In this document: positions 1 through 46,869 of the stretch, piece by piece
Numbering within the stretch: position 1 is the stretch's first letter
Layout of the letters: each line of letters starts with the position of its first letter
Origin: Prosopocoilus inquinatus
Taxonomy: Eukaryota; Arthropoda; Insecta; Coleoptera; Lucanidae
Length of the DNA: 64,000 bases
Assembly (NCBI GenBank): GCA_036172665.1
Contig: CM069877.1
Span: forward strand, 12,482,501-12,546,500
Direction: 5' to 3'
Notes under the pieces: generated by a model
Seen by the model: the letters and a program-made list of their open reading frames with translations, nothing else
Databases searched by the model: none
What the model was told of the DNA's origin: nothing
Made by a program: the position numbers and the translations under genes

Positions 1-2450
1 TTCTCTTTTTCTTTGTTCGTAAATTTGAAATTCATGTGAATTTACTTTTTTCCCCACTCAAAAGCGGGCATTAAAAATGTTTCTGTTAAATGAAGCCACC
101 AGTGTAAATGTCGCTATTAGTTTTCCGTTGGTAAATTTAAATAAAACAAAAATATTTTAACTTCAAACTTCATTTTATTAAATAAAAAAAAAACAAATCA
201 AAGCAGTTATTTAGTTTTTAGTTGAAGCTTGCAAAGATAGATGGCGCCACACTGAAGTTAAATTGAGACCGCAAAAATAAAAGAGAGAGAAATTGACGAC
301 TCATAAACAAAACTTGTAATTTATTATTTTCAACTCGGAAAAGTGCATTGAATTTTTTTCTGTTAAATGCACAGACATCAGTATAGATGTCGCTACTAGT
401 TTTCTGTTGATAAATCTAAGCAAAGTAAAAAATATTTTAACTTTCTTTTTGTCGAATGAAAAAAAAAACAATTCAGTTATTCAGTTTTCATTGTCAATTT
501 AAATTTGGCGCCTCAATTCACGCAATTGAAGTTTGCCAAGGTAGATGGCGCTGTACTAAAGTTAAAGAAGTGACGCCGCAAAAATAAAAGAGAAAGAAAT
601 TGTCGTCTCATAAACAAAAAAAAAAAACATGTTTTTCTTTTCCTTTTTTTCGTAAATTTGAAATTCATGTGAATTTAATTTTTCCCCACTCAAAAGCGGG
701 CATTAAAATTTTTCTGCTAAATGAAGACATCAGTGTAGATGTCGCTCTTAGTTTTCCGTTGGTAAATTTAAATAAAACAAAAATATTTTAATTTTAAACT
801 TCATTTTGTTCAATAAAAAAAACAAATTAATGTAGTTATTTAGTTTTTAGTGGAAGCTTGCAAAGACAGATGGCGCCACACTAAAGTTAAATTGAGACCG
901 CAAAAATAAACATTACTTGTTTCTCTATTCCTTTTTTTTCGTAAATTTGAAATTTATGTGAATTTATTTTTTTTTCAACTCGAAAAAGTACATTGAATTT
1001 TTTTCTGTTAAATGCACAGACATCAGTATAGATGTCGCTACTAGTTTTCTGTCGATAAATCTAAGCAAAGTAAAAAATATTTTAACTTTAATTCTCTTTG
1101 TCGAACGAAAAAAAAAACAAATTATTGCAGTTATTCAGTTTTTATTGTCAATTTAAATTTTGCGCCTCAATTCATGCAATTGAAGTTTGCAAAGATAGAT
1201 GGCGCTGTCCTAAAGTTAAAGAATCGTCGCTGCAAAAATAAAAGAGAAAGAAATTGTCGTCTCATAAACAAAACCTGTTTCTCCTTTTCTTTTTTTCGTA
1301 AATCTGAAACTCATATGAATTTATCTTTTTCCATTCGAAAGGGTGCATTAAAAATTTTTCTGTTGAATGAACAGACATCAATACAGATGTCGCCATTAGT
1401 TTTCTGTCGGTAAATCTAAGCAAAGTAAAAAATATTTTAACTTTAATTCTCTTTGTCGAACGAAAAAAAAAACAAATTATTGCAGTTATTCAGTTTTTAT
1501 TGTCAATTTAAATTTGGCGCCTCAATTCACGCAGTTGAAGTTTGCAAAGATAGATGGCGCTGTACTAAAGTTAAATAATTGACGCCGCAAAAATAAAAGA
1601 GAAAGAAATTGTTGTCTCATAAACAAAACTTGTTTCTCTATTCCCTTTTTTTCCCAGTAAATCTGAAACTTATGGGAATTTATCTTTTTCCATTCGAAAG
1701 AGTGAATTCAAATTTTTTCTGTTGAATGAAGAACGGTCATCAGTATAGATATCTCACTAGTTTCTTGTGGGTAAATCTAAGCAAAGTAAAAAGTATTTTA
1801 ACTTTAATTCTCTTGGACAAATAAAAAAAAAAACAAATTACTGCAGTTATTTAGTTTTTATTGTTAATTTAAATTTGGCGCCTCAATTCACGCAGTTGAA
1901 GCTTGCAACGATAGGTGGAGCCATACTAAAGTGAAAGAATCGACACCACAGAAACAAAAGAGAAAGAAGTTGACGTCTCATAAACATGTTTCTCGTTTTC
2001 TTTTTGCGTAAATTTGAAATTTAGACAGACATCAGTGTAGATGTCGCTATGTAAAGTCAAAAATATTTTAACTTTAATTCTCTTGGTCGAATTAAAAAAA
2101 GAACAAATTATTGCAGTTATTTAGAGTAGTTTTTATTGTCAATTTAAATTTGCAATGCAGCTGAAGCTTGCAAAGGTAGATGGCGCCACACTAAAGTTAA
2201 TGAATTGGTACTGCAAGAATAAAGAAATTGACGTCTCATAAACAAAACTAGTTGTTCCTTTTCTTTTCGTAAATACGAAATTCATATAAATTTATTTTCT
2301 TGTTCCGCTTAAAAACATGCATTTAAAATAATAAAATGTAGAAACATCAGTGAAGATGGCGCCACTAGTTTTTCTTGTCGGTAGATCTCTAAGTCTAAAT
2401 TATTTTTACTTTAATTTTCTTTCTTTTCATAGTTTAAAAAAAAAAAAACA
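1..2450 (+). repeat. Tandem array of AGATGGCGCC-containing units, forward block
   Basis: Units of about 260-360 bp repeat head to tail, with copies of the core at about 241, 545, 871, 1199, 1554, 1914 (degenerate) and 2179. Each unit runs: a TAGATGGCGCC-type core after a GCTTGCAAAG motif, an AAAATAAAAGAGAAAGAAA stretch, CTCATAAACAAAACTTG, a T/C-rich tract, then CGTAAATTTGAAATTCATG. Copies differ by small indels and substitutions. The left edge is cut by the window. Short open frames here are chance products of the repeat. No end of a mobile element is visible on the left. Confidence 0.85.
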
Positions 2451-2584
2451 TTTATAAGCTCCTCTTCTCTTCTGATTGAAATATTTATGTAATTTGTGGT
2501 ATAAATAAACAAAAGAAAATTGTCTTGACATAAACTTACCAATAGTTATTAAGAATAAATAGATGAATAAATAAATAATAAATT

Positions 2585-4745
2585 TTTAATGCTAGCTTTT
2601 GGGTGGGGAAAAAAATTAATTCACATGAATTTCAAATTTACGAAAAAAAAAGGAAAAGAAAAACATGTTTTTTTTTTTGTTTATGAGACGTCAATTTCTT
2701 TCTCTTTTACTTTTGTGGTCTCAATTCTTTAACTTGAGGTTGGCGCCATCTATCTTCGCTAGCTTCAACTGCATAAATTAAAGCAACTGATAACAAAAAC
2801 TAAATAACTGCAATAATTTGATTTTTTTATTCGACAAAGAGAATTAAAGTTAAAATATTTTTTACTTTATTTACATTTACCGACAGAAAACTGGTGTATG
2901 TGCATTTAACAGAACAATTTTTAATGCAGGCTTTCGAGTGGAAAAAAGTAAATTCACGTGAATTTCAAATTTACGAAAAAAGAAAGAAAGAAACAGGTTT
3001 TGTTCATGAGATGTCAATTTCTTTCTCTTTTATTTTTACGGCGTCAATTATTTAACTTTGTTGTGGCGCCATCTATCTTTGCAATCCTCAACTGCATGAA
3101 CAGAGGCTGAACAGAGGCGCCAAACTTAAATTGATAATAAAAACTGTAAGTAACTATTTTTTTTTATTCGACAAAGAATTAAAGTTAAAATATTTTTTAC
3201 TTAGATTCACCGACAAAAAACCATCTCATTTATACTGACGTTTTTTGATTTAATAATAATGTTTTTATTTTATGTTGTTAAGCGGAAAAAAATAAATTCA
3301 TATGAATTTCATATTTAGAAGAAAAAAAGCCTTGTTGGTATTTTCACATCAATTTCCTGCTGATTTATTTTTCCCGCGTCAATTCTTTAACTTTTGTGTG
3401 GTGCCATCTAACTTTGCAAGCTTCAACCGTATCAAAGACGCGGCAAATTCAAATCGACAATAAAAGTAAGTAACTGCAATTATTTGTGTTTTTTCAGTTT
3501 TCTTCACAGACACAAAAATAGTAGCAACATCTACATTGATGCTTCTTCATTTAACAAAAAAATTTTAAAGAGCGCGTGCGTTTTCGAGCGCAAAAAAATC
3601 AATCCACAAGAATTTTATATTTGAACAAAAAAGAAAGCAGGAAAACGGATATCGTTTGAGATGTCAATTTTCTTAACTTTTGCGTGGCGCCATCTACTTT
3701 TGCAAGCCTCAACCGTATGAAATTATGCGCGCCAAATTCAATTAAAGCAATCGACAATAAAAATTAAATAACTGCAATAATTTGATTTTTTTATTCGACA
3801 AAGAGAATTAAAGTTAAAATATTTTTTACTTTGCTTACATTTACCGACAGAAAACTGGTAGCGACATCTATACTGGTGTATGTGCATTTAATAGAACAAT
3901 TTTTAATGCAGGCTTTCGAGCGGAAAAAAGTAAATTCACGTGAATTTTAAACTTACGAAAAAAGAAAGAGAGAAACAGGTTTTGTTCATGAGAGGTCAAT
4001 TTCTTTCTCTTTTATTTTTACGGCGTCAATTCTTTAACTTCAGTGTGGTGCCATCTATCTTTGAAAGCCTCAACTACATGAAATGAGGCGCAAAACTTAA
4101 ATTGAAAATAAAAATTGTAAGTAACTATTTTTTTTTTAATTCGACAAAGAATTAAAATTAAAATATTTTTTACTTAGATTCACTGACAGAAAGCCAACAG
4201 CGACATTTCATCTATAATGACGTTTGTTCATTTAATAGGAATAATAACAATAATTTGTCTTTAATGCATTTTTTAAACCGAAAAAATAAATACATATGAA
4301 TTTCATATTTAGAAGAAAAAAAGCCTTGTTGGTGTTTTTTCTCAATTATTTTTCCCGCGTCAATTCTTTCACTTTTGTGTGGCGCCATCTAACTTTCCAA
4401 GCTTCAACCGTATCAAAGACGCGGCAAATTCAAATCGACAATAAAAGTAAGTAACTGCAATTATTTGTTTTTTCAGTTTTTTTCACAGACACAAAACTAA
4501 TGGCGACATCTACATCGATGGTTGTTCGTTTAACAGAAAAATTTTAAAGAGCGCGTGCGTTTTCCAGCGAAAAAAAAACAATCCACAAGAATTTTATATT
4601 GGAACAAAAAAGAAAGCAGGAAAACGGATATCGTTTGAGATGTCAATTTTCTTAACTTTTGCGTGGCGCCATCTATTTTTGCAAGCTTTAACCGTATGAA
4701 TTAATGCGCGCCAAATTCAAATTGACAATAAAAATTAAATTTATG
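2585..4745 (-). repeat. Same array family in inverted orientation
   Basis: From about 2585 the units of the preceding block appear as reverse complements: TTTCAAATTTACG, then the purine tract, then the core as GGCGCCATCT at about 2748, 3066, 3687, 4380 and 4670. A higher-order period of about 960-990 bp is visible, because the segment with GATATCGTTTGAGATGTC occurs near 3647 and again near 4627. About 135 bp of AT-rich spacer (2450-2585) separates the two orientations, so 1-4745 forms a very large imperfect inverted repeat. Confidence 0.8.
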
Positions 4746-5715: not shown

Positions 5716-5962
5716 GCTTATTACAGTGGCGTAACTAGAAGCCAAGCCGCCGGGTTTCAAAATTTTTACCAGCGCCTTTCTTTATTACTATTTTATTGAA
5801 GCTTTAAAGGACAAAATTAAAAAAAATAAATTACTTTAAAAAGTACATTTCCGCGGCTGTTTACTTTCTATCCTAAGAGAATCAAGACTGCTTAGTTACT
5901 TTTAGATTTCTTAGAAAGTGTGAAAATTTTAGGTTAGAAAAGCTGTCAAACACTAGTGCTAG

Positions 5963-8900
5963 CAGTGGCGGCTCGTGATGATTTACCACGGGTGGGTAAC
6001 AACTGCAAAAGGGAAAGCGGGTACATTTTCCACATAAATTTGTTTGAATCGGAACGTGCAACTTCAGCAGGACAAGGTTGACCTTGAAACAATTTTCCCA
6101 AATTTTTGACTTTTTATTTTGGAAACCTTTCTAATTTTGTTTAAATTTTTCACGATTTCTGTCTCTTTTAGATTCTTCAATTGGGTTCGTTTGACCTTGA
6201 AATTATTCCTCGAATTGTAATCGTTTTCTTTGCGATTTTCAAAAAAAATTCTCCAGTTTTTCTTTTCACAGTTTGTCACCGATTAGGTCGATGCAGTTCA
6301 ATTGAGTTGGCCTTGAAACGATTTTCCCAAAATCTTTCAGATTTTTATTTTGGAAATCTTACTAATTTTGCTTAAAATTTTCAGGATCATGTACTGTCTT
6401 TTAAATTATTCAGTTGGATTGCGTTAACCTTGAAATTGTTTCTCGAATTTTAATCGTATTTTTGCATTCTTAAAATTTTTTTCTCCCAATTTTTCTTATG
6501 TTGGTTTGGACTTGAAACTATTTTTCAATTTTTCTGTACTTTTCCGGAAAATTTAAACTCTTTTTGCGATAATTTTTAATAATTTCCAACTTCGTTTAAA
6601 TTTTTCACGATTTCTATCTATTTTAGATTTATCAGTTAGGTTCGGTTGACCTTGAAGTTATTTCTCGAATTTTAATTGTTTTCTTTGCAATTTTTTAAAA
6701 TTTTTTTCTCCAGTTTTTCTCTTTATAGTTTGTCCCCGATTAGGTCGATGCAGTTCGGTTCGGTTGACCTTGAAACGATTTTCCCAAATTTTTGAGATTT
6801 TTGTTTTGGAAATCTATCTAATTTTGCTTAAAATTTTCACGACTTCTGTCAATTTTAGATTCTTCAATTGGGTTCGTTTGACCTTGAAATTTCTCCTCGA
6901 ATTTTAATCGTCTTTTTGCATTTTTCAAATTTTTTCCTCCAATTTTTCTATGTTGGTTTGAACTTTTTCGGAAAATTTAAACTCTTTTTCCTTTGATTTT
7001 TCATAATTTTTAATTTTGTTTAAATTTTTCACGATTTCTGTCTCTTAGATTCTTCAATTCGGTTCGGTTGACCTTGAAATTATTCCTCGAATTTTAATCG
7101 TTTTCTTTGCGATTCTTTAAAAAGAAATACTCCAGTTTTTCTTTTCACAATTTGTCACCGATTAGGTCGATGCAGTTCAGTTGGGTTGGCCTTGAAACGA
7201 TTTTCCCAAAATCTTTCAGATTTTTATTTTATTTCTAATTTTGCTTAAAATTTTCAGGATTATGTACTGTCTTTTAAATTCTTCAGTTGGATTGGGTTGA
7301 CCTTGAAATTGTTTCTCGAATTTTAATCGTTTTTTTGCATTCTTAAAATTTTTTTCTCCCAATTTTTCTTATGTTGGTTTGGACTTAAAACTATTTTTAA
7401 ATTTTTCTGTACTTTTCCGGAAAATTTAAACTCCTTTTGCGATAATTTTTCATAATTTCCAACTTCGTTTAAATTTTTCACGATTTCTATCTATTTTAGA
7501 TTTATCAGTTAGGTTCGGTTGACCTTGAAGTTATTTCTCGAATTTTAATTGTTTTCTTTGCAATTTTTTAAAATTTTTTTCTCCAGTTTTTCTCTTTATA
7601 GTTTGTCCCCGATTAGGTCGATGCAGTTCGGTTCGGTTGACCTTGAAACGATTTTCCCAAATTTTTGAGATTTTTGTTTTGGAAATCTATCTAATTTTGC
7701 TTAAAATTTTCACGACTTCTGTCAATTTTAGATTCTTCAATTGGGTTCGTTTGACCTTGAAATTTCTCCTCGAATTTTAATCGTCTTTTTGCATTTTTCA
7801 AATTTTTTCCTCCAATTTTTCTATGTTGGTTTGAACTTTTTCGGAAAATTTAAACTCTTTTTCCTTTGATTTTTCATAATTTTTAATTTTGTTTAAATTT
7901 TTCACGATTTCTGTCTCTTAGATTCTTCAATTCGGTTCGGTTGACCTTGAAATTATTCCTCGAATTTTAATCGTTTTCTTTGCGATTCTTTAAAAAGAAA
8001 TACTCCAGTTTTTCTTTTCACAATTTGTCACCGATTAGGTCGATGCAGTTCAGTTGGGTTGGCCTTGAAACGATTTTCCCAAAATCTTTCAGATTTTTAT
8101 TTTATTTCTAATTTTGCTTAAAATTTTCAGGATTATGTACTGTCTTTTAAATTCTTCAGTTGGATTGGGTTGACCTTGAAATTGTTTCTCGAATTTTAAT
8201 CGTTTTGTTGCATTCTTAAAATTCTTTTCTCCCAATTTTTCTTATGTTGGTTTGGACTTGAAACTATTTTTCAATTTTTCTGTACTTTTCCGGAAAATTT
8301 CAACTCTTTGCGATAATTTTTCATAATTTCCAACTTCGTTTAAATTTTTCACGATTTCTATCTATTTTAGATTTATCAGTTAGGTTCGGTTGACCTTGAA
8401 GTTATTTCTCGAATTTTAATTGTTTTCTTTGCAATTTTTTAAAATTTTTTTTCTCCAGTTTTTCTCTTCATAGTTTGTCCCCGATTAGGTCGATGCAGTT
8501 CGGTTCGGTTGACCTTGAGACGATCTTCCCAAATTTTTGAGATTTTTGTTTTGGAAATCTTTCTAATTTTGCTTAAAATTTTCACGACTTCTGTCAATTT
8601 TAGATTCTTCAATTGGGTTCGTTTGACCTTGAAATTTCTCCTCGAATTTTAATCGTCTTTTTGCATTTTTCAAATTTTTTCCTCCAATTTTTCTATGTTG
8701 GTTTGAACTTTTTCGGAAAATTTAAACTCTTTTTCCTTTGATTTTTCATAATTTTTAATTTTGTTTAAATTTTTCACGATTTCTGTCTCTTAGATTCTTC
8801 AATTCGGTTCGGTTGACCTTGAAATTATTCCTCGAATTTTAATCGTTTTCTTTGCGATTCTTTAAAAAGAAATACTCCAGTTTTTCTTTTCACAATTTGT

Positions 8901-11900
8901 CACCGATTAGGTCGATGCAGTTCAGTTGGGTTGGCCTTGAAACGATTTTCCCAAAATCTTTCAGATTTTTATTTTATTTCTAATTTTGCTTAAAATTTTC
9001 AGGATTATGTACTGTCTTTTAAATTCTTCAGTTGGATTGGGTTGACCTTGAAATTGTTTCTCGAATTTTAATCGTTTTTTTGCATTCTTAAAATTTTTTT
9101 CTCCCAATTTTTCTTATGTTGGTTTGGACTTGAAACTATTTTTAAATTTTTCTGTACTTTTCCGGAAAATTTAAACTCCTTTTGCGATAATTTTTCATAA
9201 TTTCCAACTTCGTTTAAATTTTTCACGATTTCTATCTATTTTAGATTTATCAGTTAGGTTCGGTTGACCTTGAAGTTATTTCTCGAATTTTAATTGTTTT
9301 CTTTGCAATTTTTTAAAATTTTTTTCTCCAGTTTTTCTCTTTATAGTTTGTCCCCGATTAGGTCGATGCAGTTCGGTTCGGTTGACCTTGAAACGATTTT
9401 CCCAAATTTTTGAGATTTTTGTTTTGGAAATCTATCTAATTTTGCTTAAAATTTTCACGACTTCTGTCAATTTTAGATTCTTCAATTGGGTTCGTTTGAC
9501 CTTGAAATTTCTCCTCGAATTTTAATCGTCTTTTTGCATTTTTCAAATTTTTTCCTCCAATTTTTCTATGTTGGTTTGAACTTTTTCGGAAAATTTAAAC
9601 TCTTTTTCCTTTGATTTTTCATAATTTTTAATTTTGTTTAAATTTTTCACGATTTCTGTCTCTTAGATTCTTCAATTCGGTTCGGTTGACCTTGAAATTA
9701 TTCCTCGAATTTTAATCGTTTTCTTTGCGATTCTTTAAAAAGAAATACTCCAGTTTTTCTTTTCACAATTTGTCACCGATTAGGTCGATGCAGTTCAGTT
9801 GGGTTGGCCTTGAAACGATTTTCCCAAAATCTTTCAGATTTTTATTTTATTTCTAATTTTGCTTAAAATTTTCAGGATTATGTACTGTCTTTTAAATTCT
9901 TCAGTTGGATTGGGTTGACCTTGAAATTGTTTCTCGAATTTTAATCGTTTTGTTGCATTCTTAAAATTCTTTTCTCCCAATTTTTCTTATGTTGGTTTGG
10001 ACTTGAAACTATTTTTCAATTTTTCTGTACTTTTCCGGAAAATTTCAACTCTTTGCGATAATTTTTCATAATTTCCAACTTCGTTTAAATTTTTCACGAT
10101 TTCTATCTATTTTAGATTTATCAGTTAGGTTCGGTTGACCTTGAAGTTATTTCTCGAATTTTAATTGTTTTCTTTGCAATTTTTTAAAATTTTTTTTCTC
10201 CAGTTTTTCTCTTCATAGTTTGTCCCCGATTAGGTCGATGCAGTTCGGTTCGGTTGACCTTGAGACGATCTTCCCAAATTTTTGAGATTTTTGTTTTGGA
10301 AATCTTTCTAATTTTGCTTAAAATTTTCACGACTTCTGTCAATTTTAGATTCTTCAATTGGGTTCGTTTGACCTTGAAATTTCTAATTTTGTTTAAATTT
10401 TTCACGATTTCTGTCTCTTAGATTCTTCAATTCGGTTCGGTTGACCTTGAAATTATTCCTCGAATTTTAATCGTTTTCTTTGCGATTCTTTAAAAAGAAA
10501 TACTCCAGTTTTTCTTTTCACAATTTGTCACCGATTAGGTCGATGCAGTTCAGTTGGGTTGGCCTTGAAACGATTTTCCCAAAATCTTTCAGATTTTTAT
10601 TTTATTTCTAATTTTGCTTAAAATTTTCAGGATTATGTACTGTCTTTTAAATTCTTCAGTTGGATTGGGTTGACCTTGAAATTGTTTCTCGAATTTTAAT
10701 CGTTTTGTTGCATTCTTAAAATTCTTTTCTCCCAATTTTTCTTATGTTGGTTTGGACTTGAAACTATTTTTCAATTTTTCTGTACTTTTCCGGAAAATTT
10801 CAACTCTTTGCGATAATTTTTCATAATTTCCAACTTCGTTTAAATTTTTCACGATTTCTATCTATTTTAGATTTATCAGTTAGGTTCGGTTGACCTTGAA
10901 GTTATTTCTCGAATTTTAATTGTTTTCTTTGCAATTTTTTAAAATTTTTTTTCTCCAGTTTTTCTCTTCATAGTTTGTCCCCGATTAGGTCGATGCAGTT
11001 CGGTTCGGTTGACCTTGAGACGATCTTCCCAAATTTTTGAGATTTTTGTTTTGGAAATCTTTCTAATTTTGCTTAAAATTTTCACGACTTCTGTCAATTT
11101 TAGATTCTTCAATTGAGTTCATTTGACCTTGAAATTTCTCCTCGAATTTTAATCGTCTTTTTGCATTTTTCAAATTTTTTCCTCCAATTTTTCTTATGTT
11201 GGTTTGAACTTTTTCGGAAAATTTAAACTCTTTTTGCTTTGATTTTTCATAATTTCTAATTTTGTTTAAATTTTTCACGATTTCTGTCTCTTTTAGATTC
11301 TTAAATTGGGTTCGTTTGACCTTGAAATTATTCCTCGAATTTTAATCGTTAAAATTTTCAGGATTATGTACTGCCAATTAAATTCTTCAGTTGGATTGGG
11401 TTAACCTTGAAATTGTTTCTCGAATTTTAATCGTTTTTTTGCATTCTTAAAATTCTTTTCTCCCAATTTTTCTTATGTTGGTTTGGACTTGAAACTATTT
11501 TTCAATTTTTCTGTACTTTTCCGGAAAACTTAAACTCCTTTTGCGATAATTTTTCATAATTTCCAACTTCGTTTAAAATTTTCACGATTTCTATCTATTT
11601 TAGATTTATCAGTTAGGTTCGGTTGACCTTGAAATTATTTCTCGAATTTTAATTGTTTTCTTTGCAATTTTTTAAAATTTTTTTCTCCAGTTTTTCTCTT
11701 TATAGTTTGTCCCCGATTAGGTCGATGCACTTCGGTTCGGTTGACCTTGAAACGATTTTCCCAAATTTTTGAGATTTTTGTTTTGGAAATCTATCTAATT
11801 TTGCTTAAAATTTTCACGACTTCTGTCAATTTTAGATTCTTCAATTGGGTTCGTTTGACCTTGAAATTTCTCCTCGAATTTTAATCGTCTTTTTGCATTT

Positions 11901-13101
11901 TTCAAATTTTTTCCTCCAATTTTTCTTATGTTGGTTTGAACTTTTTCGGAAAATTTAAACTCTTTTTGCTTTGATTTTTCATAATTTCTAATTTTGTTTA
12001 AATTTTTCACGATTTCTGTCTCTTTTAGATTCTTAAATTGGGTTCGTTTGACCTTGAAATTATTCCTCGAATTTTAATCGTTAAAATTTTCAGGATTATG
12101 TACTGCCAATTAAATTCTTCAATTGGATTGGGTTAACCTTGAAATTGTTTCTCGAATTTTAATCGTTTTTTTGCATTCTTAAAATTCTTTTCTCCCAATT
12201 TTTCTTATGTTGGTTTGGACTTGAAACTATTTTTCAATTTTTGTGTATTTTTCCGGAAAATTTAAACTCTTTTTGCGATAATTTTTCATAATTTCCAATT
12301 TCGTTTAAATTTTTCACGATTTCTATCTATTTTAGATTCATCAGTCAGGTTCGGTTGACCTTGAAACGACTTTATTTTCTCGAATTTTAATCGTTTTCTT
12401 TGCAATTTTTTTAAAAATTTTTCCTCCAGTTTTTCTCTTTATAGTTTGTTCCCGATTAGGTCGATGCAGTTCGGTTGAATTGACCTTGAAACGATTATCC
12501 CAAATTTTTGAGATTTTTGTTTTGAAAATCTTTCTAATTTTGCGCTTAAAATTTTCACGATTATTGTCTGTTTTAGTTTATTTAGTTGGATTGGGTTGAC
12601 CTTGAAATTATTTCTCCAATTTTAATCGTTTTCTTTGCAATTTTTAAAAAAATTCTTTTCTCCAGTTTTTCTCTTTATAGTTTGTCCCCGATTAGGTCGA
12701 TGCAGTTCGGTTGCGTTGACCTTGAAACGATTTCCCCAAAATTTTTGAGATTTTTGTTTTGAAAATCTTTCTAATTTTGTGCTTAAAATTTTCACGATTT
12801 CTGTCTGCCTTAGTTTCTTTAGTTGAATTGAGTTGACCTTGAAATTATGTCGTGAATTTTAATCGTTTTCTTTGCGATTTTTAATTTTTTTTCCCCCAAT
12901 TTTCCTTTTCATAATTTGTCTCCTATTAGGTCAATGTAATTCGGTTGGGTTTTTGGGATTTTCTGCGAGTAGGCAACAACTGCAAAAGTTAAAGTGGGTA
13001 CGTTTTCCAAATAAATTTGTTTTTCGGGGCTGTCTCGACTTGGAACCGGAATGTGCAACATCAGTAGTACGGGGTGGGTCCACCCCGACGAGCCGCCACT
13101 G
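5963..13101. mobile_element. hAT-like non-autonomous element, family E1, copy 1, carrying a satellite array
   Basis: The ends are CAGTGGCGGCTCGTG on the left and GACGAGCCGCCACTG on the right. Flanks AGTGCTAG (5955-5962) and AGCGCTAG (13102-13109) form an 8-bp duplication with one mismatch. About 110-135 bp of subterminal sequence on each side, including the motif CAACAACTGCAAAAG in the same orientation at both ends, matches the ends of the 675-bp copy at 46195-46869. This shows the array is enclosed by a real element. The cargo is about 6.9 kb of tandem repeats with no coding capacity for a transposase. Confidence 0.85.
6070..12945. repeat. Satellite array with 873-bp higher-order repeat, rich in TTGACCTTGA
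   Basis: A marker segment (GATTATGTACTG; GATCATG in the first copy) recurs at 6385, 7258, 8131, 9003, 9876, 10631, 11362 and 12094. This gives spacings of 873, 873, 872, 873, 755, 731 and 732 bp. The 873-bp copies are close to identical, while the later ones carry internal deletions. Each higher-order unit is built from degenerate sub-units of about 110-190 bp, each with the core TTGACCTTGAAA or a variant (GGCCTTGAA, AACCTTGAA, GGACTTGAA). By eye there are about 40 copies of TTGACCTTGA in the same orientation. Open frames inside it are repeat artefacts. Confidence 0.9.
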
Positions 13102-13129
13102 AGCGCTAGCGTTTCAAAATTGTTTACCC

Positions 13130-15180
13130 ACAAATAAGGAGGACAAGTTTAGGGTTCCGAATAACAGGTGGCGTTGCTACTTGTGTCCAGAACACGTTCT
13201 TAGATTTTTTCGGTGCGCGCAGGTTACTAGATGGATCACAATTGCTTGTAAATTCTTTCCTTCTAATTATTTATATTTAAAATTGTATTTATTCGAAATT
13301 GTTTCCTAATATTTTTAGTTAAGAGACATTTACGGCGGACATAAATGTCATTCATTCGAGATTGACGCTTAGATAAACAAATTTCTTGGGTTTTCTTACT
13401 GTTTTTCAATTGTTTTGAAATCCTTTCGTCACAAATGATGAGGACAAACTTACAGTTCCAAATAACAGATGGCGCTGTTACTGTTTTGCGTTTACAACAC
13501 GTCATTTATTCGAAGTTGATGCTTAGAATATAGACGAATAGATGGCGCCACAAATGTTCCTTTTATTTCAAACTTGTTTTCAGAACATTGTTTTTGAACG
13601 TTTTTAGGTTTTCCCTGTCATTGTCCGGTAAATAAAAAATGGGCATAGCGTTGTGGCTCAAGGTAACAGATGGCGGTACGAAAGCTTATAACTTCTTTCG
13701 CTTTAATAATTTGTGCTTAAGACTGCATTTATTTGAAGTTGTTTTCAGAACATTGTTTTTAAACCTCCCCGACGTTTTTCGGTTGAGATATATTTGCGGC
13801 GCGTGTTAACAGATGGCGTCCTAAAGTCATTCGTTTGAAATTGACGCTTAGAAAAACATACTTTTTGAGTTTTCTTAATGTTTCTCGGTTGTTTTGAAAT
13901 CGTGTCCTCACAAATGCAGAGGACAAACTTACGGTCCCGAATAACAGATGGCGCCGTTACTGTTTGCGTTTACAACACGTCATTCATTCGAAGTTGATGC
14001 TTAGAACATGGACGGATAGATGGCGCTACAAATTTCAATTTCATTTCTAACTTGTTTTCAGAACATTTGTTTTTGAACGTTTTCAGGTTTTCCGGTTGTT
14101 TTCCGGTAAATAAAAAATGGGCGTAGCGTTGTGGCTCAAGGTAACAGATGGCGGTACTAAAGCTTTATATAAATTTTTTCGCTTTAATAATTTGTGCTTA
14201 AAACTGCATTTATTCGAAGTTGTTTTCAGAACATTGTTTTTAAACCTTCGCGACGTCTCTCGGTTGAGATATACTGACGACGCGTGTTAACAGATGGCGT
14301 CATAAATGTCATTCGTTTGAAATTGACGCTTAAAAAACATGCTTCTTGAGTTTTCTTAATGTTCCTCGGTTGTTTTGAAATCGTGTCCTCACTAATGCAG
14401 AGGATAAACTTACGGTTCCGAATAACAGATGGCGCCGTTACTGTTTTGCATTTGCAACACGTCATTTATTCGAAGTTGATGCTTAGAATATAGACGGATA
14501 GATGACGCCACATATGTTCCATTTCATTTCAAACTTGTTTTCAGAACATTGTTTTTGAACGTTTTTAGGTTTTCCCTGTCCAGTAAATAAAAAATGGGCG
14601 TAGCGTTGTGGCTCAAGGTAACAGATGGCGGTACTAAAGCTTTATATAAATTTTTTCGCTTTAATAATTTGTGCTTAAAATTGTATTTATTCTAAAGTTG
14701 TTTTCAGAACATTATTTTTAAACCTTCCCGACGTTTTTCGGTTGAGATATATTTACGGCGCGTGTTACCAGATGGCGTCATAAACGTCATTCATTTGAAA
14801 TGTACTCTTAGAAAACATACTTCTTGAGTTTTCTTAATGCTTTTCAGTTGTTTTGAAATCGTTTCCTCACAAATGAAGAGGACAAACTTACGCTTCCGAA
14901 TAACAGATGGCGCTGTTACTGTTTTGCGTTTACAACATGTCATTTATATGAAATTGATGCTTAGAATATGAACGGGTACATTAATAAATGTCATTCATTT
15001 GAAATTAACGCCTAAAACATAATTCTCAAGTTTTCTTGGCGTGTTTCAGTTGTTTTGAAATCGTTTGTCCACAAGTACAAGTTTACAGTTCAGAATAACA
15101 GATGGTGCTGTAACTATTTGCGTCTAAGTCATTCATTCGAAATTGATGCTTAGATAGAATATATTTCTTGAGTTTACATA
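13130..15180. repeat. 480-bp-period array with ACAGATGGCG cores, inside E2
   Basis: The marker GGACAAACTTAC (one variant) recurs at 13441, 13922, 14403 and 14880, spacings 477-482 bp. Each period holds about four copies of a GATGGCG core (for example 13469, 13543, 13669, 13815), joined by segments such as CATTTATTCGAAGTTG and TTTTCAGAACATTG. The same segments occur in the other E2 copies at 37.5-37.9 and 43.5-44.4 kb, so this array is the native cargo of family E2. Confidence 0.85.
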
Positions 15181-15310
15181 GCGTTTCTTGAAATTGTTTT
15201 TCGGCAACATCTACAAAAATTAATAATCCCATTTTTAAGTTAAAGACGATTCAGGGGCGTGCCTTCATTTTATTAGTTTTTTTTTTTTTAATTATTTCAG
15301 ATATCGATGT

Positions 15311-16239
15311 ACAGGGTGTCCCATTTTAGGCGGATTCTTTCATACCTCTCTAGTTATTAATTTTACGAAAAAATGTTTCAAATTAAAGTTTCACAAGATC
15401 ATGTGGGGCATATTTTGAAATCATTTTGATGTATACAGAGTGTTCCATTTAGCCTGGGCGTTAGGTCACTTCGTTATTTTAAATGGAACACCCTATATTT
15501 TTTTACATTTTCGGGTTCTAAATTGAATTTTAATGTGACCTTGTATAACATACATAGGGTCTAATCTCAACCGTTTTCGCGTTATTCAACTTTTAAAAAA
15601 AAATTATTGCTCTTGCAGCACCTCAAACAAATGCAAATATCTTCCGAATAAATAACGTTAGGGACTTGTGGTTTTTTTGCAAAAGTTTCGCTTTGAAACG
15701 GTTTTTCAGTTATACTGTAAAGAAAAAGATTTTTGCAACCTAAGGTCTTAAAAAAAATTAATAAGTTTGATTATTCTCAAGTTTATAAATTTTTTTTTTT
15801 TAGAACTTATTTTGCTAGAATTTTTTCTATACAGTGTAACTGAAAAAGCGTTTCAAGACGAAACTTTTGCAAAAAAAAACCATAAGTCCCTAACGTTATT
15901 TATTCCGAAGATATTTGCATTTGTTTGAGGTACTGCAAGAGCGATAATTTTTTAAAAAGTTGAATAACGCGAAAACGGTTTAGATTAGACCCTAGGTATG
16001 GTACACAATGTCACATTAAAATTCAATCCAGAATCCGAAAATGTCAAAATATATAAAGTATTCCATTTAAAATAACGAAATGACCTAACGCCCAGGCTAA
16101 ACGGAACACTCAGTACACGTCAAACTAATTTTAAAATATGCTCCACATGATCCTGTGAAACTTTCATTTGAAACACTTTTTCGTAAAATTAATAACTAGA
16201 GAGGTACGAAAGAATCTGCCTTAAGTGGGACACTCTGTA
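15311..16239. mobile_element. Foldback element with ACAGGGTGTCCCA termini
   Basis: The left half from ACAGGGTGTCCCATTTTAG reappears as an inverted copy ending TAAGTGGGACACTCTGTAT. Almost the whole 929 bp folds on itself around about 15780. A second pair of ends (ACAGAGTGTTCC near 15437 and GGAACACTC near 16103) lies inside, suggesting one palindromic element inserted in another. No coding sequence. It lies inside the E2 element. Confidence 0.85.
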
Positions 16240-16393
16240 TAAGTATACTTGATTATCAACAAACATTTCACCCAAGCTAACCCAACAAACATTTTAATTT
16301 TTACTTTAAGTTTCGAACATACGCCCATGTCGTCTTAGTGCCGGGTTGCTTTGCAATCCCTGCGACCCCTGTGGTTACGCCACTGGCTTATTA

Positions 16394-43144: not shown

Positions 43145-44655
43145 CAGTGGCGTAATTAGAAGTCAAGTCGCCGGGTTGCAATTTTTTTACCAGCGCTTTT
43201 TATCATTGCAATATTTATTATTTAAAAAAGTAAAACTAAGAAAGAAAAGAAATCTTCAACTGCTTATTTTCAGTGCCACATAAATCAAGACTGCTTAAGT
43301 GCTTTTGGATTATCCTATTTCTAAAAAGTGACGAAAGCTGTCAAAATTTTAGGTTAGGAGAGTTCCCGAAAACTATCGGAGTTCGCTTAAACTATTTCTC
43401 TCCGAACACTTTCTCTTGAAGAAATTTGCTTGCTTTCAGCTGTTTTGAAACTGTCTTTCAGAGTTGCAAGGGAACGAAATTAATTGCGGCAACAGATTAA
43501 TAGATGGCGCGGCGGTGCTTCTTTGAAACTTTTTTTAAACCAATTCTGTTCAACTTTATTTATTCGAAATTGTAATTGAAATGTGATTGTAACATTATTT
43601 AATGTTGTTTTAGCGATTTTTAGTAGCCTAGAGAAATAACACGCAGTCACAGTTGTGACTCATGGTAACAGAAGGCGCAAGGTTCTGTTTATCCGCTACT
43701 TACGTTTGTGTGATTTTCTTTTGAAACTTCTTTTAACCATTTTTGTTACGACTTTATTTATTCGAAGTTGTTTTCTGTAATATAATTTTTTTTTGTGTTT
43801 TTCAGTTGCCCTGAAATTTCTTCTCCGCCAATAAAGAGAACACGGTTACGACTCATGGTAACAGATGGCGCCACAAATGTTTTCGTCACAAATGTTTTTT
43901 TTTTTTAATTCAAAGCGATGCGTTCTTAATCGATCTTGATTCATGTTATTGGGTTTTTAGATCGTTTTCCGGTATATAAAGAAGAACGTTATGGCACGTG
44001 GTAACAGATAGCGCCACAAATGTTTTTGCGTCACAAATGTTTTTCTTTATTCAAGAACGATGTTATTGATCGGTCTTGAAGAATGTTCTTAAGTTTTTCG
44101 GTCGTTTTCCGGTAAATAAAGAGTGCAATGTTGTGACTCAGGGTAACAGATGGCGCCACATGTGCATGTAAATTCTTTGCTTTAACTATTTAAGCGTAAC
44201 ATTTTTATTTATTCGAAGTTCTTTTCAGGACATTGTCCTTGAACGTCCCTAACGTTTTTCAGTTGTTTTGGAATATCTGCCCGGCAAATTAGAAATTTAC
44301 GGCTCGGATTCACAGAGGGCGCTACAAACGTCGCCGTCCATTGATGCTTAAAATGTCGTTTTTTTAGCGTTTCACAGCTGTTTTGAAATTGTCTTCCAGC
44401 AATAAGATCTCCAAAAATAGTTTTTCTACTTTTCTTTCTTTTTTTACTTATTTAAAACTACTCTGTATTTGAAAATGTATGCTTTTCTGAAATGTTTAAA
44501 GTTTTGCTTACTACAAATAAGCTTTCACGTTTCTTCGTTTGGGAATCTTTACAAATTCAGGCAAAAGTTTTTGCATTAGATTTCGAACTGGCGGCTATGG
44601 CGATTTAGCGCCGGGTTGCTTTGCAATCCCTGCAACCCCTGTAGCTACGCAACTG
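43145..44655. mobile_element. hAT-like element, family E2, copy 2
   Basis: CAGTGGCGTAATTAGAAG on the left and TAGCTACGCAACTG on the right; flanks GGTTGCAC (43137-43144) and GATTGCAC (44656-44663) form an 8-bp duplication with one mismatch. At 1,511 bp it is a compact form of the 10.7-kb copy. Its cargo is repeats with GATGGCGCC-type cores near 43505, 43865, 44005, 44150 and 44320. The right subterminal GCCGGGTTGCTTTGC is shared with copy 1. Confidence 0.85.
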
Positions 44656-46194: not shown

Positions 46195-46869
46195 CAGTGG
46201 CGGTTCGTCGGGGTGGGCAAGGTGGGAAGTGCCCACCCAGTCCTACGCAGTTGCAAGTTGCAAGTTGCGGTTCCTCGAAAAACAAATTTGTTTAGAAAAT
46301 GCACCGACTTTCCCTTTTGCAGTTGTTGTCGATTCGTCGATTGTTTTTTGCTGAAAGGCGTTGGCAAGCTGAGAAAAAGCTCTGTAAATCCCCCAATTAA
46401 ATTGAATTCAAAAACTACAAGCATAAGCGCGAGGGGAGGGAGAGACGTTCATTTAATTGAGCAAATAAGAAACGCAATGCTTTTGAATCTTGATTGTAAC
46501 ACAAGAATGCGTTGGCCGATTATTTTTTTGGTAAAAGGCGTTGGAAAGCCGAGAAAAAGCTCTGTAAATCTCCCGCTTAAATTTAATTCAAAAACTACAA
46601 GCGCAATCGCGAGGGGAGGGAGAGACGTTCAATTAATTGAGCAAATGCGCGTTTGCTTTTGAATTTTGATTGTATCTCGAAAACTCATTCGTCGATTGTT
46701 TTTTGGTAAAAGGCGTTGGAAAGCTGAGAAAAAGCTGTGTAAATCTCCCGCTTAAATTTAGTTAAAAAATTACAAGCCCTGATAAACAAATTTATTTGGA
46801 AAATGCACCCACTTTCCCTTGTGCATCAGTTGTTGCCCACCCGCAGTAAATCATCACGAGCCGCCACTG
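46195..46869. mobile_element. hAT-like element, family E1, copy 2 (675 bp)
   Basis: Ends CAGTGGCGGTTCGTCGG and CATCACGAGCCGCCACTG, inverted relative to the 5963-13101 copy. Flanks AAGGGAGC and AAGGGGCC agree at six of eight positions. Inside is a 175-180-bp tandem repeat of about 2.3 copies (GGCGTTGG near 46357, 46537, 46712) whose sequence differs from the satellite in copy 1. The overlapping plus-strand frames (46031-46662) are not recognised as protein. Confidence 0.8.

What the first reader, a model, noticed from the sequence alone, without database searches (positions are those of the whole stretch)
5716..16393. Matryoshka of two hAT-like elements, each loaded with satellite DNA
A 10.7-kb unit with CAGTGGCGTAAC ends and a perfect 8-bp duplication (GCTTATTA) contains a second, 7.1-kb unit with CAGTGGCGGCTCGT ends and its own 8-bp duplication (AGTGCTAG/AGCGCTAG). 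Neither shows a transposase; both carry long tandem arrays as cargo. TIR elements with internal tandem repeats are known in Drosophila as sources of satellites, but a 7-kb higher-order array still inside its transposon, nested in another such element, would be notable.
Basis: partly seen in the sequence, partly recalled or inferred. Interest (0 to 1): 0.85.

Follow-up and report, generated by a model that had tools for sequence, protein, structure and literature searches.

The report
Nested hAT-type transposons carrying satellite-like arrays
A short mobile DNA element landed inside another one, and its internal repeats appear to have swelled into a 7-kb satellite-like array seen at no other place in this assembly; similar processes have been described, but here a short sister copy allows comparison.

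Summary
Outer unit: 5724-16385, perfect 8-bp duplication. Inner unit: 5963-13101, 8-bp duplication differing at one base. Both belong to genome-wide families: exact end words occur 764 and 1,118 times, reversed words 0. Of 21 sampled inner-family copies with a findable right end, 19 have 8-bp duplications with at most one mismatch. Of 36 other outer-family copies, 18 show the inner element's target motif uninterrupted.

Best reading: non-autonomous hAT-type elements; the 7-kb array is a local amplification inside this copy. A 642-bp sister copy carries one ~416-bp block; the window copy carries 11 near-complete blocks, including four 873-bp units 98.2-99.9% alike. No close array was found elsewhere in the assembly (next best about 75%), so it seeds no spread satellite. 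No matching transposase end was found in the 37 of 150 listed hAT hits examined. hAT MITEs with kb-size tandem repeats are published (Atlantic cod).

By-product: the outer cargo repeats AGATGGCGC, found 50,294 times genome-wide against 951 reversed.

The parts
5716..5723 (.). left 8-bp target duplication of outer element, GCTTATTA
   Evidence: identical to 16386-16393
5724..16385 (+). outer non-autonomous hAT-type element, ends CAGTGGCGTAAC / GTTACGCCACTG
   Evidence: its right end matches the right ends of all eight family copies compared, 74-87% over 37-102 columns
5955..5962 (.). left 8-bp target duplication of inner element, AGTGCTAG
5963..13101 (+). inner non-autonomous hAT-type element, ends CAGTGGCGGCTCGT / ACGAGCCGCCACTG
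   Evidence: left end 83-93% alike to the 39 other places scored, mostly over its first 80-85 bases
6078..12951 (+). tandem array of roughly 115-bp monomers with TTGACCTTGAAA-like boxes (56 sites with at most 2 mismatches, 73-222 bp apart)
6372..9862 (+). four consecutive 873-bp higher-order units, 98.2-99.9% identical (units 2 and 4, 1,745 bp apart: one mismatch)
13102..13109 (.). right 8-bp target duplication of inner element, AGCGCTAG
13340..14969 (+). outer element's own array, 478 bp x 3.4, carrying AGATGGCGC boxes
15310..15311 (.). TA at left tip of third element
15312..16237 (.). third nested element: long palindrome, tips CAGGGTGTCCCA / CAGAGTGTCCCA, arms 88.6% alike over 448 columns
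16238..16239 (.). TA at right tip of third element
16386..16393 (.). right 8-bp target duplication of outer element, GCTTATTA
46195..46869 (-). ordinary copy of the inner family with 180-bp repeats (675 bp; duplications differ at 2 of 8)
43145..44655 (+). ordinary copy of the outer family with AGATGGCGC boxes; no inner end word inside

Best explanation
Two non-autonomous hAT-type transposons. The outer one inserted first, leaving GCTTATTA twice. A copy of the inner family then inserted about 240 bp inside it, and a palindromic element flanked by TA inserted near its right end. The inner element belongs to a minor subfamily that carried one block of about 416 bp (about four monomer lengths). 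Inside this copy that block was tandemly duplicated into a two-block 873-bp unit, and repeated out-of-register exchange or slippage multiplied it (with a 1,745-bp step visible) to about 7 kb. Shown: nesting, target duplications, family membership, the short sister copy, homogeneity of the array and its absence elsewhere in the assembly. Inferred: that growth followed insertion, and that unequal exchange or slippage did it.
For: Exact ends and 8-bp duplications. Family-wide duplications: 19 of 21 inner-family copies with at most 1 mismatch (29 loci examined, 8 had no right end in reach; best candidate right end taken); outer family 8 with at most 2 mismatches (4 with at most 1) of 15 copies with a candidate right end (37 loci examined, 36 with a left end). 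Empty site: 18 of 36 outer-family copies carry the target motif with at most 4 of 18 mismatches and no insert there; shuffles 1 of 720 (alignment, output partly cut). Sister copy L070 (C2:58,677 kb): 642 bp, duplications CGTTCGGA/CGTTCGGT, one block (its positions 91-506) that aligns to 11 near-complete blocks of the window array at 72-76%, plus partial ones. Array units 98.2-99.9% alike and without a close match elsewhere. Internal repeats are usual in the family: 14 of 19 copies with both ends and a duplication carry 144-179-bp tandem repeats over 43-82% of their length. The outer's 478-bp unit has its nearest relative at 78%, in the family copy L040.
Against: No transposase with these ends was found (0 of 37 flanks within 2 mismatches). 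Related monomers at C10 and C11 lie in stretches of 3.6 and 2.2 kb without CAGTGGCG, so the monomer is not confined to the element. L070's right end is diverged (only CAGTGG of the word is kept) and was placed by eye with its duplication. 18 of 36 outer copies do not show the target motif, among them L040, the nearest relative, whose alignment spans the junction with gaps. 7 of the 15 outer copies with a candidate right end have flanks with 4 or more mismatches; in three of these (L004, L005, L046) the right-end word is exact. Gene conversion could also keep units alike, so the timing is not proven.
Confidence: 0.76

Rival explanations
1. Capture: the inner element took up a pre-existing genomic satellite by recombination or gap repair, and carried it.
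For: Related monomers exist outside CAGTGGCG ends at C10:1.453 Mb and C11:2.87 Mb, and the box TTTCAAGGTCAACC occurs 1,551 times genome-wide; of the 100 listed places on C1, 98 are not within 3 kb of an exact inner end word of the listed 100.
Against: No donor array above about 75% identity among the 40 of 46 candidates scored; the 642-bp sister copy already has the block in the same position in the element.
Confidence: 0.14
2. The arrays are functional: each repeat is a binding site, either for the transposase (as proposed for Galileo and Tetris internal repeats, PMC4079207 discussion) or for a host protein. Box A, AGATGGCGC, is the core of described CTCF sites and also equals the TIR tip CAGTGGCG with one A inserted. 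Copies with more sites were favoured.
For: GATGG, AGATG, ATGGC and CAGAT are the four most conserved 5-mers of 484 in interiors of 30 of the 37 outer loci; 24 of 100 listed TAACAGATGGCGCC places lie inside an outer element on the same strand against a mean of 0.27 after shifting; same core in two described CTCF sites.
Against: Local alignments favour conserved words (bias). 8 of 11 stepped AGATGGCGC places, all in the first 4 Mb of C1, have no similarity to the outer family at E 1e-8. AGGTGGCGC, another core of the CTCF type by recall, is only 2.2-fold over its reversal. No binding data.
Confidence: 0.2
3. The array length or order is an assembly artefact.
For: Two 873-bp units differ by one base; no reads are available.
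Against: The other five pairs of the four units differ by 8-13 substitutions, three of them with 3 gap positions; shorter variants (755- and 732-bp steps) lie in order along the array; both junctions with the outer element are present with matching duplications.
Confidence: 0.06
4. The elements belong to another superfamily with 8-bp duplications (P, Mutator, Merlin; recalled) and not hAT.
For: No transposase found with identical ends.
Against: CAG start, and a hAT/DUF4371 transposase gene in the same genome is bordered by CAGGGCCGGCCCGT...TTGAGCCGGCACTG with a perfect 8-bp duplication.
Confidence: 0.06

Closest known systems
gadMor-hAT-1784 MITEs of Atlantic cod (PMC12368964, passages read)
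   Same: hAT-type, non-autonomous, kb-size tandem repeats; repeat length 167-169 bp close to the 144-179 bp of the inner family's ordinary copies; the paper speaks of a complex, nested pattern of these MITEs
   Different: there the repeats form the long TIRs and sit at inversion breakpoints; here they lie between short ends, with an 873-bp higher-order unit, inside a member of a second family
Tetris / TIR-220 of Drosophila virilis (PMC4079207, abstract and first part of discussion read)
   Same: non-autonomous TIR element whose internal tandem repeats grew into long arrays (up to 66 copies); no autonomous partner found
   Different: foldback, put with Mutator by its authors; repeats inside the TIRs; array clusters seen in two species. 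Here the grown array is seen at one locus
miDNA4 MITE of Xenopus tropicalis (PMC9659126, passages read)
   Same: satellite monomer born inside a MITE and then amplified, as the review describes it
   Different: Tc1-mariner type by the review's table
hAT gene (DUF4371 + Dimer_Tnp_hAT) of this genome, C5:49.19 Mb
   Same: 8-bp duplication GTAAATAG on both sides; each end 11 of 14 bases like the inner element's
   Different: ends are CAGGGCCGGCCCGT and CAGTGCCGGCTCAA; no significant similarity beyond the tips

Membership tests
hAT superfamily (non-autonomous member) | 8-bp target site duplication | tested here: met
   window 0 and 1 mismatches; 19 of 21 inner-family copies with at most 1 mismatch, 8 of 15 outer copies with at most 2
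hAT superfamily (non-autonomous member) | short terminal inverted repeats beginning CAG (feature recalled) | tested here: met
   CAGTGGCGTAAC over 12 bases, CAGTGGCGGCTCGT over 14 bases, inverted at the other end
hAT superfamily (non-autonomous member) | hAT transposase in an autonomous copy with the same ends | tested here: inconclusive
   3' flanks of 37 of the 150 listed PF05699 hits (1,474 first-look candidates) examined, none within 2 mismatches; best 3 of 14
Nested insertion | empty target site in other copies of the host element | tested here: met
   18 of 36 outer-family copies, shuffles 1 of 720
Satellite DNA (dispersed family) | homogeneous arrays at several loci | tested here: not met
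   873-bp unit: all listed matches above 80% over more than 250 bp are at this locus (40 of 46 candidates scored); unassembled heterochromatin not seen
Tetris-like / foldback element | tandem repeats inside long terminal inverted repeats | tested here: not met
   no inverted self-match of the inner element at E 1e-20; repeats lie between short ends
CTCF site (box A) | binding by CTCF | not testable with these tools
   sequence core only: AGATGGCGC occurs in two described CTCF sites

The most novel reading that the evidence does not exclude
The cargo arrays of these transposons are arrays of protein-binding boxes. The outer family and other tandem repeats multiply AGATGGCGC (core of described CTCF sites; 50,294 copies, 53-fold over its reversed word); the inner array multiplies TCAAGGTCA (a nuclear-receptor half-site by recall; 35,540 copies, 9.7-fold). 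Tandem growth inside non-autonomous elements would then be a way of building and spreading clusters of architectural or transcription-factor sites, and not only a by-product of satellite birth.
Probability: 0.18. Interest if true: 0.72.

Novelty: new member of a known kind. Interest (0 to 1): 0.42.

Why it matters
The locus gives an ordered series for satellite birth inside a transposon: a host element whose empty site is seen in relatives, an inserted element with its duplication, a 642-bp sister with one block, and the grown 7-kb higher-order array seen in one copy. That makes the step from MITE repeat to satellite comparable before and after. If the boxes repeated in these arrays are bound by host proteins, the same process would spread regulatory sites.

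Tried and rejected
Autonomous partner: 17 flanks of 1.2 kb and 20 of 0.9 kb downstream of hAT dimerisation domains were read, 37 of 150 listed hits. None ends like these families; the best (3 of 14 mismatches) is a DUF4371 hAT with related tips. Rejected as the mobiliser on present evidence.

Inner monomer = the family's ordinary 180-bp repeat: rejected; alignment of one such copy (L027) to the window element covers only the ends.

Inner-family ends as the general host of the TTTCAAGGTCAACC box: rejected on contig C1 (0 of 100 listed places inside an exact inner end word on the same strand within 3 kb, 2 nearby otherwise).

Outer family as the source of all AGATGGCGC boxes: rejected; 3 of 11 stepped places match it. 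These 11 were taken from the first 100 listed places, all in the first 4.03 Mb of C1. A twelfth fetched place (L128) was chosen because of its 120-bp array and is not counted.

Literature: seven searches. Searches gave nothing used here; led to Tetris and the review, to the cod paper, to the two CTCF passages. No title in those listings names a nested hAT pair with arrays, but the cod passages do mention a nested pattern.

Full report
Check of the observation. The outer element runs 5724-16385 with GCTTATTA on both sides; the inner runs 5963-13101 with AGTGCTAG and AGCGCTAG. The end words are those of abundant families: CAGTGGCGTAACTA has 764 exact places in the 649.6-Mb assembly and CAGTGGCGGCTCGT has 1,118; the same words reversed have none. 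The first 117 bases of the inner element (from its second base) found 1,005 first-look candidates (40 scored), the left 240 bases of the outer 854 (40 scored).

Do the ends behave as element ends? Among the 100 listed places of the inner end word, all on contig C1, neighbours under 3 kb apart are convergent 12 times (spans 163-1,850 bp), divergent twice (both 23 bp, a repeated arrangement) and never same-strand. In 29 inner-family loci other than the window, 21 had a recognisable right end within reach; 19 of these have 8-bp duplications with 0 (8 copies) or 1 (11 copies) mismatch, 2 do not match (L013, L029) and 8 loci had no right end in reach (where several right ends were possible the best-matching was taken). 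Of 37 other outer loci, 36 had a recognisable left end and 15 of those a candidate right end; 8 had duplications with at most 2 mismatches (4 with at most 1), 7 had 4 or more mismatches. In the outer search the allowed mismatches admit false right ends, but three of the 7 (L004, L005, L046) have an exact right-end word without a matching duplication, which stands against a simple reading of those copies.

Is the inner element really inside the outer? With one copy of the duplication kept, the two sides of the insertion align with other outer-family copies that lack the insert (output partly cut; only L040 spanned the junction, with gaps there). The family target AAACTAGCGCTAAGCGGA is present with at most 4 of 18 mismatches in 18 of 36 copies; shuffled sequence gives 1 of 720. 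L040, the nearest relative, is among the 18 without it. The usual family form AGCGCTA matches the right duplication of the window, so the left copy probably bears the mutation (inference).

A third insertion. Positions 15312-16237 are a long palindrome (arms 88.6% alike over 448 columns) with tips CAGGGTGTCCCA/CAGAGTGTCCCA and TA on each side. Beyond it the sequence continues as the family's right end (74-87% over 37-102 columns in all eight copies compared). So the unit is one host element with two insertions.

What the inner array is. It holds 56 boxes like TTGACCTTGAAA (at most 2 mismatches), 73-222 bp apart. Four consecutive 873-bp units (6372-9862) are 98.2-99.9% identical; units 2 and 4, 1,745 bp apart, differ by one base. 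The 873-bp unit finds 46 first-look candidates in the genome; of the 40 scored, every listed match above 80% over more than 250 bases is at this locus, and the best others are C10:1.453 Mb (72%) and C2:58.677 Mb (75%). The C2 place (L070) is a 642-bp inner-family copy: left end 12 of 14 bases, right end diverged (only CAGTGG kept; I placed it by eye), flanks CGTTCGGA/CGTTCGGT, and one block at its positions 91-506. That block aligns to 11 near-complete blocks of the window element at 72-76%, nine of them directly successive, plus partial ones. The C10 and C11 places have related monomers in stretches of 3.6 and 2.2 kb without such ends. Hence the array most likely grew inside this copy from a block the subfamily already had; the monomer itself is wider than the subfamily.

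Family habit. Of the 19 inner-family copies chosen for having both ends and a duplication, 14 carry tandem repeats of 144-179 bp over 43-82% of their length; 5 carry none by this test. Their repeat is not related to the window's monomer, judged from one copy. The outer family's interiors hold boxes close to CAGATGGCG at irregular spacing, but the same program finds tandem repeats over only 0-5% of the 8 copies tested. The 478-bp unit of the window has its nearest relative in L040 at 78%; in the window it is repeated 3.4 times at 88%. So internal repeats are usual in the inner family, and in this locus both elements hold grown arrays.

Class. 8-bp duplications and CAG ends fit hAT (the second is recalled knowledge). 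150 PF05699 hits were listed from 1,474 candidates. The 3' flanks of 37 of them show no end within 2 mismatches of either family. One DUF4371 plus hAT-dimerisation gene (823 aa in the fetched stretch, open at its end) is bordered by CAGGGCCGGCCCGT and TTGAGCCGGCACTG with GTAAATAG on both sides: a relative by its tips only. The mobiliser is not identified.

Boxes. AGATGGCGC has 50,294 places against 951 for its reversal, the one-base variant AGGTGGCGC 3,536 against 1,582, TAACAGATGGCGCC 1,125 against 1, and the window holds 27 against 0.11 expected. In pairwise alignments of 30 of 37 outer interiors the four best conserved 5-mers of 484 all lie in CAGATGGC; local alignment favours such words, so this is suggestive only. 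24 of 100 listed TAACAGATGGCGCC places on C1 lie within 3 kb inside an outer left end on the same strand, against a mean of 0.27 after shifting. Of 11 stepped AGATGGCGC places in the first 4.03 Mb of C1, 3 match the outer family and 8 do not; by eye the flanks of the 8 look mostly unrelated to each other. The word lies in two described CTCF sites (PMC5739101 and PMC2921154, passages). It also equals the TIR tip CAGTGGCG with one A added, so a transposase site is equally open. TCAAGGTCA, the core of the inner array's box, has 35,540 places against 3,654; TTTCAAGGTCAACC has 1,551 against 1, and of the 100 listed places on C1, 63 are at 65-75 Mb and none at 10-35 Mb. That this core is a nuclear-receptor (FTZ-F1/NR5A) half-site is recalled, not tested.

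Prior art. Cod hAT-derived MITEs with 167-169-bp tandem repeats, kb-size accumulations and a nested pattern (PMC12368964, passages), Tetris of Drosophila virilis (PMC4079207, abstract and first part of discussion), and a review listing MITE-born satellites (PMC9659126, passages). The finding is therefore a new member of a known kind, with an unusually clear before-and-after comparison.

Limits. One assembly, no reads, no named relatives, organism not identified; counts from DNA searches are lower bounds by the tool's own statement; place lists show the first 100 only.

Noticed in passing
whole genome; window 27 places, e.g. 13467, 13540, 37868: AGATGGCGC is 53 times commoner than its reversed word (50,294 to 951), while AGGTGGCGC is only 2.2 times; 8 of 11 sampled places lie outside the outer family. 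Core of described CTCF sites.
   Followed up: partly
L128 (G000:C1:3839300-3840900), 347-1323: A separate 120-bp tandem array (8.1 copies) without similarity to the outer family, with 7 AGATGGCGC boxes 120 bp apart.
   Followed up: no
window 1-4720: Tandem repeats of about 355 bp and about 330 bp in opposite orientations (the 25 longest inverted pairs are 71-185 nt, 70-93% complementary) with 12 AGATGGCGC boxes: looks like a further repeat-armed, foldback-like element cut by the window edge.
   Followed up: partly
window 37165 and 43145: Two outer-family copies with nearly the same upstream flank, 6 kb apart: probably a local duplication including the element.
   Followed up: no
G000:C1:2566614-2566965: TCAAGGTCA recurs mostly every 11 bp, more than 20 times: a minisatellite made of the box.
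   Followed up: no
G000:C1: Of 100 listed TTTCAAGGTCAACC places on C1, 63 are at 65-75 Mb and none at 10-35 Mb, unlike the inner-family ends.
   Followed up: partly
G000:C1:21323707 and 21342846: Two pairs of inner-family ends back to back with 23 bp between starts, 19 kb apart.
   Followed up: no
L013: Inner-family copy (812 bp) with good ends but non-matching 8-bp flanks (5 of 8 differ): possible recombinant between two copies.
   Followed up: no
L004 and L005: Two outer-type copies (480 and 618 bp) with exact right-end words, similar right flanks (GTTATGAA, GTCATGAA) and no 8-bp duplication (4 of 8 differ): perhaps nested in, or part of, another repeat.
   Followed up: no
L089/L077 (G000:C5:49.185-49.188 Mb) and L091/L079: Apparently young DUF4371-hAT with related tips: the C5 copy has an open transposase frame and a perfect 8-bp duplication (GTAAATAG), the C9 copy AGCGCAGT/AGCGCAGA.
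   Followed up: partly
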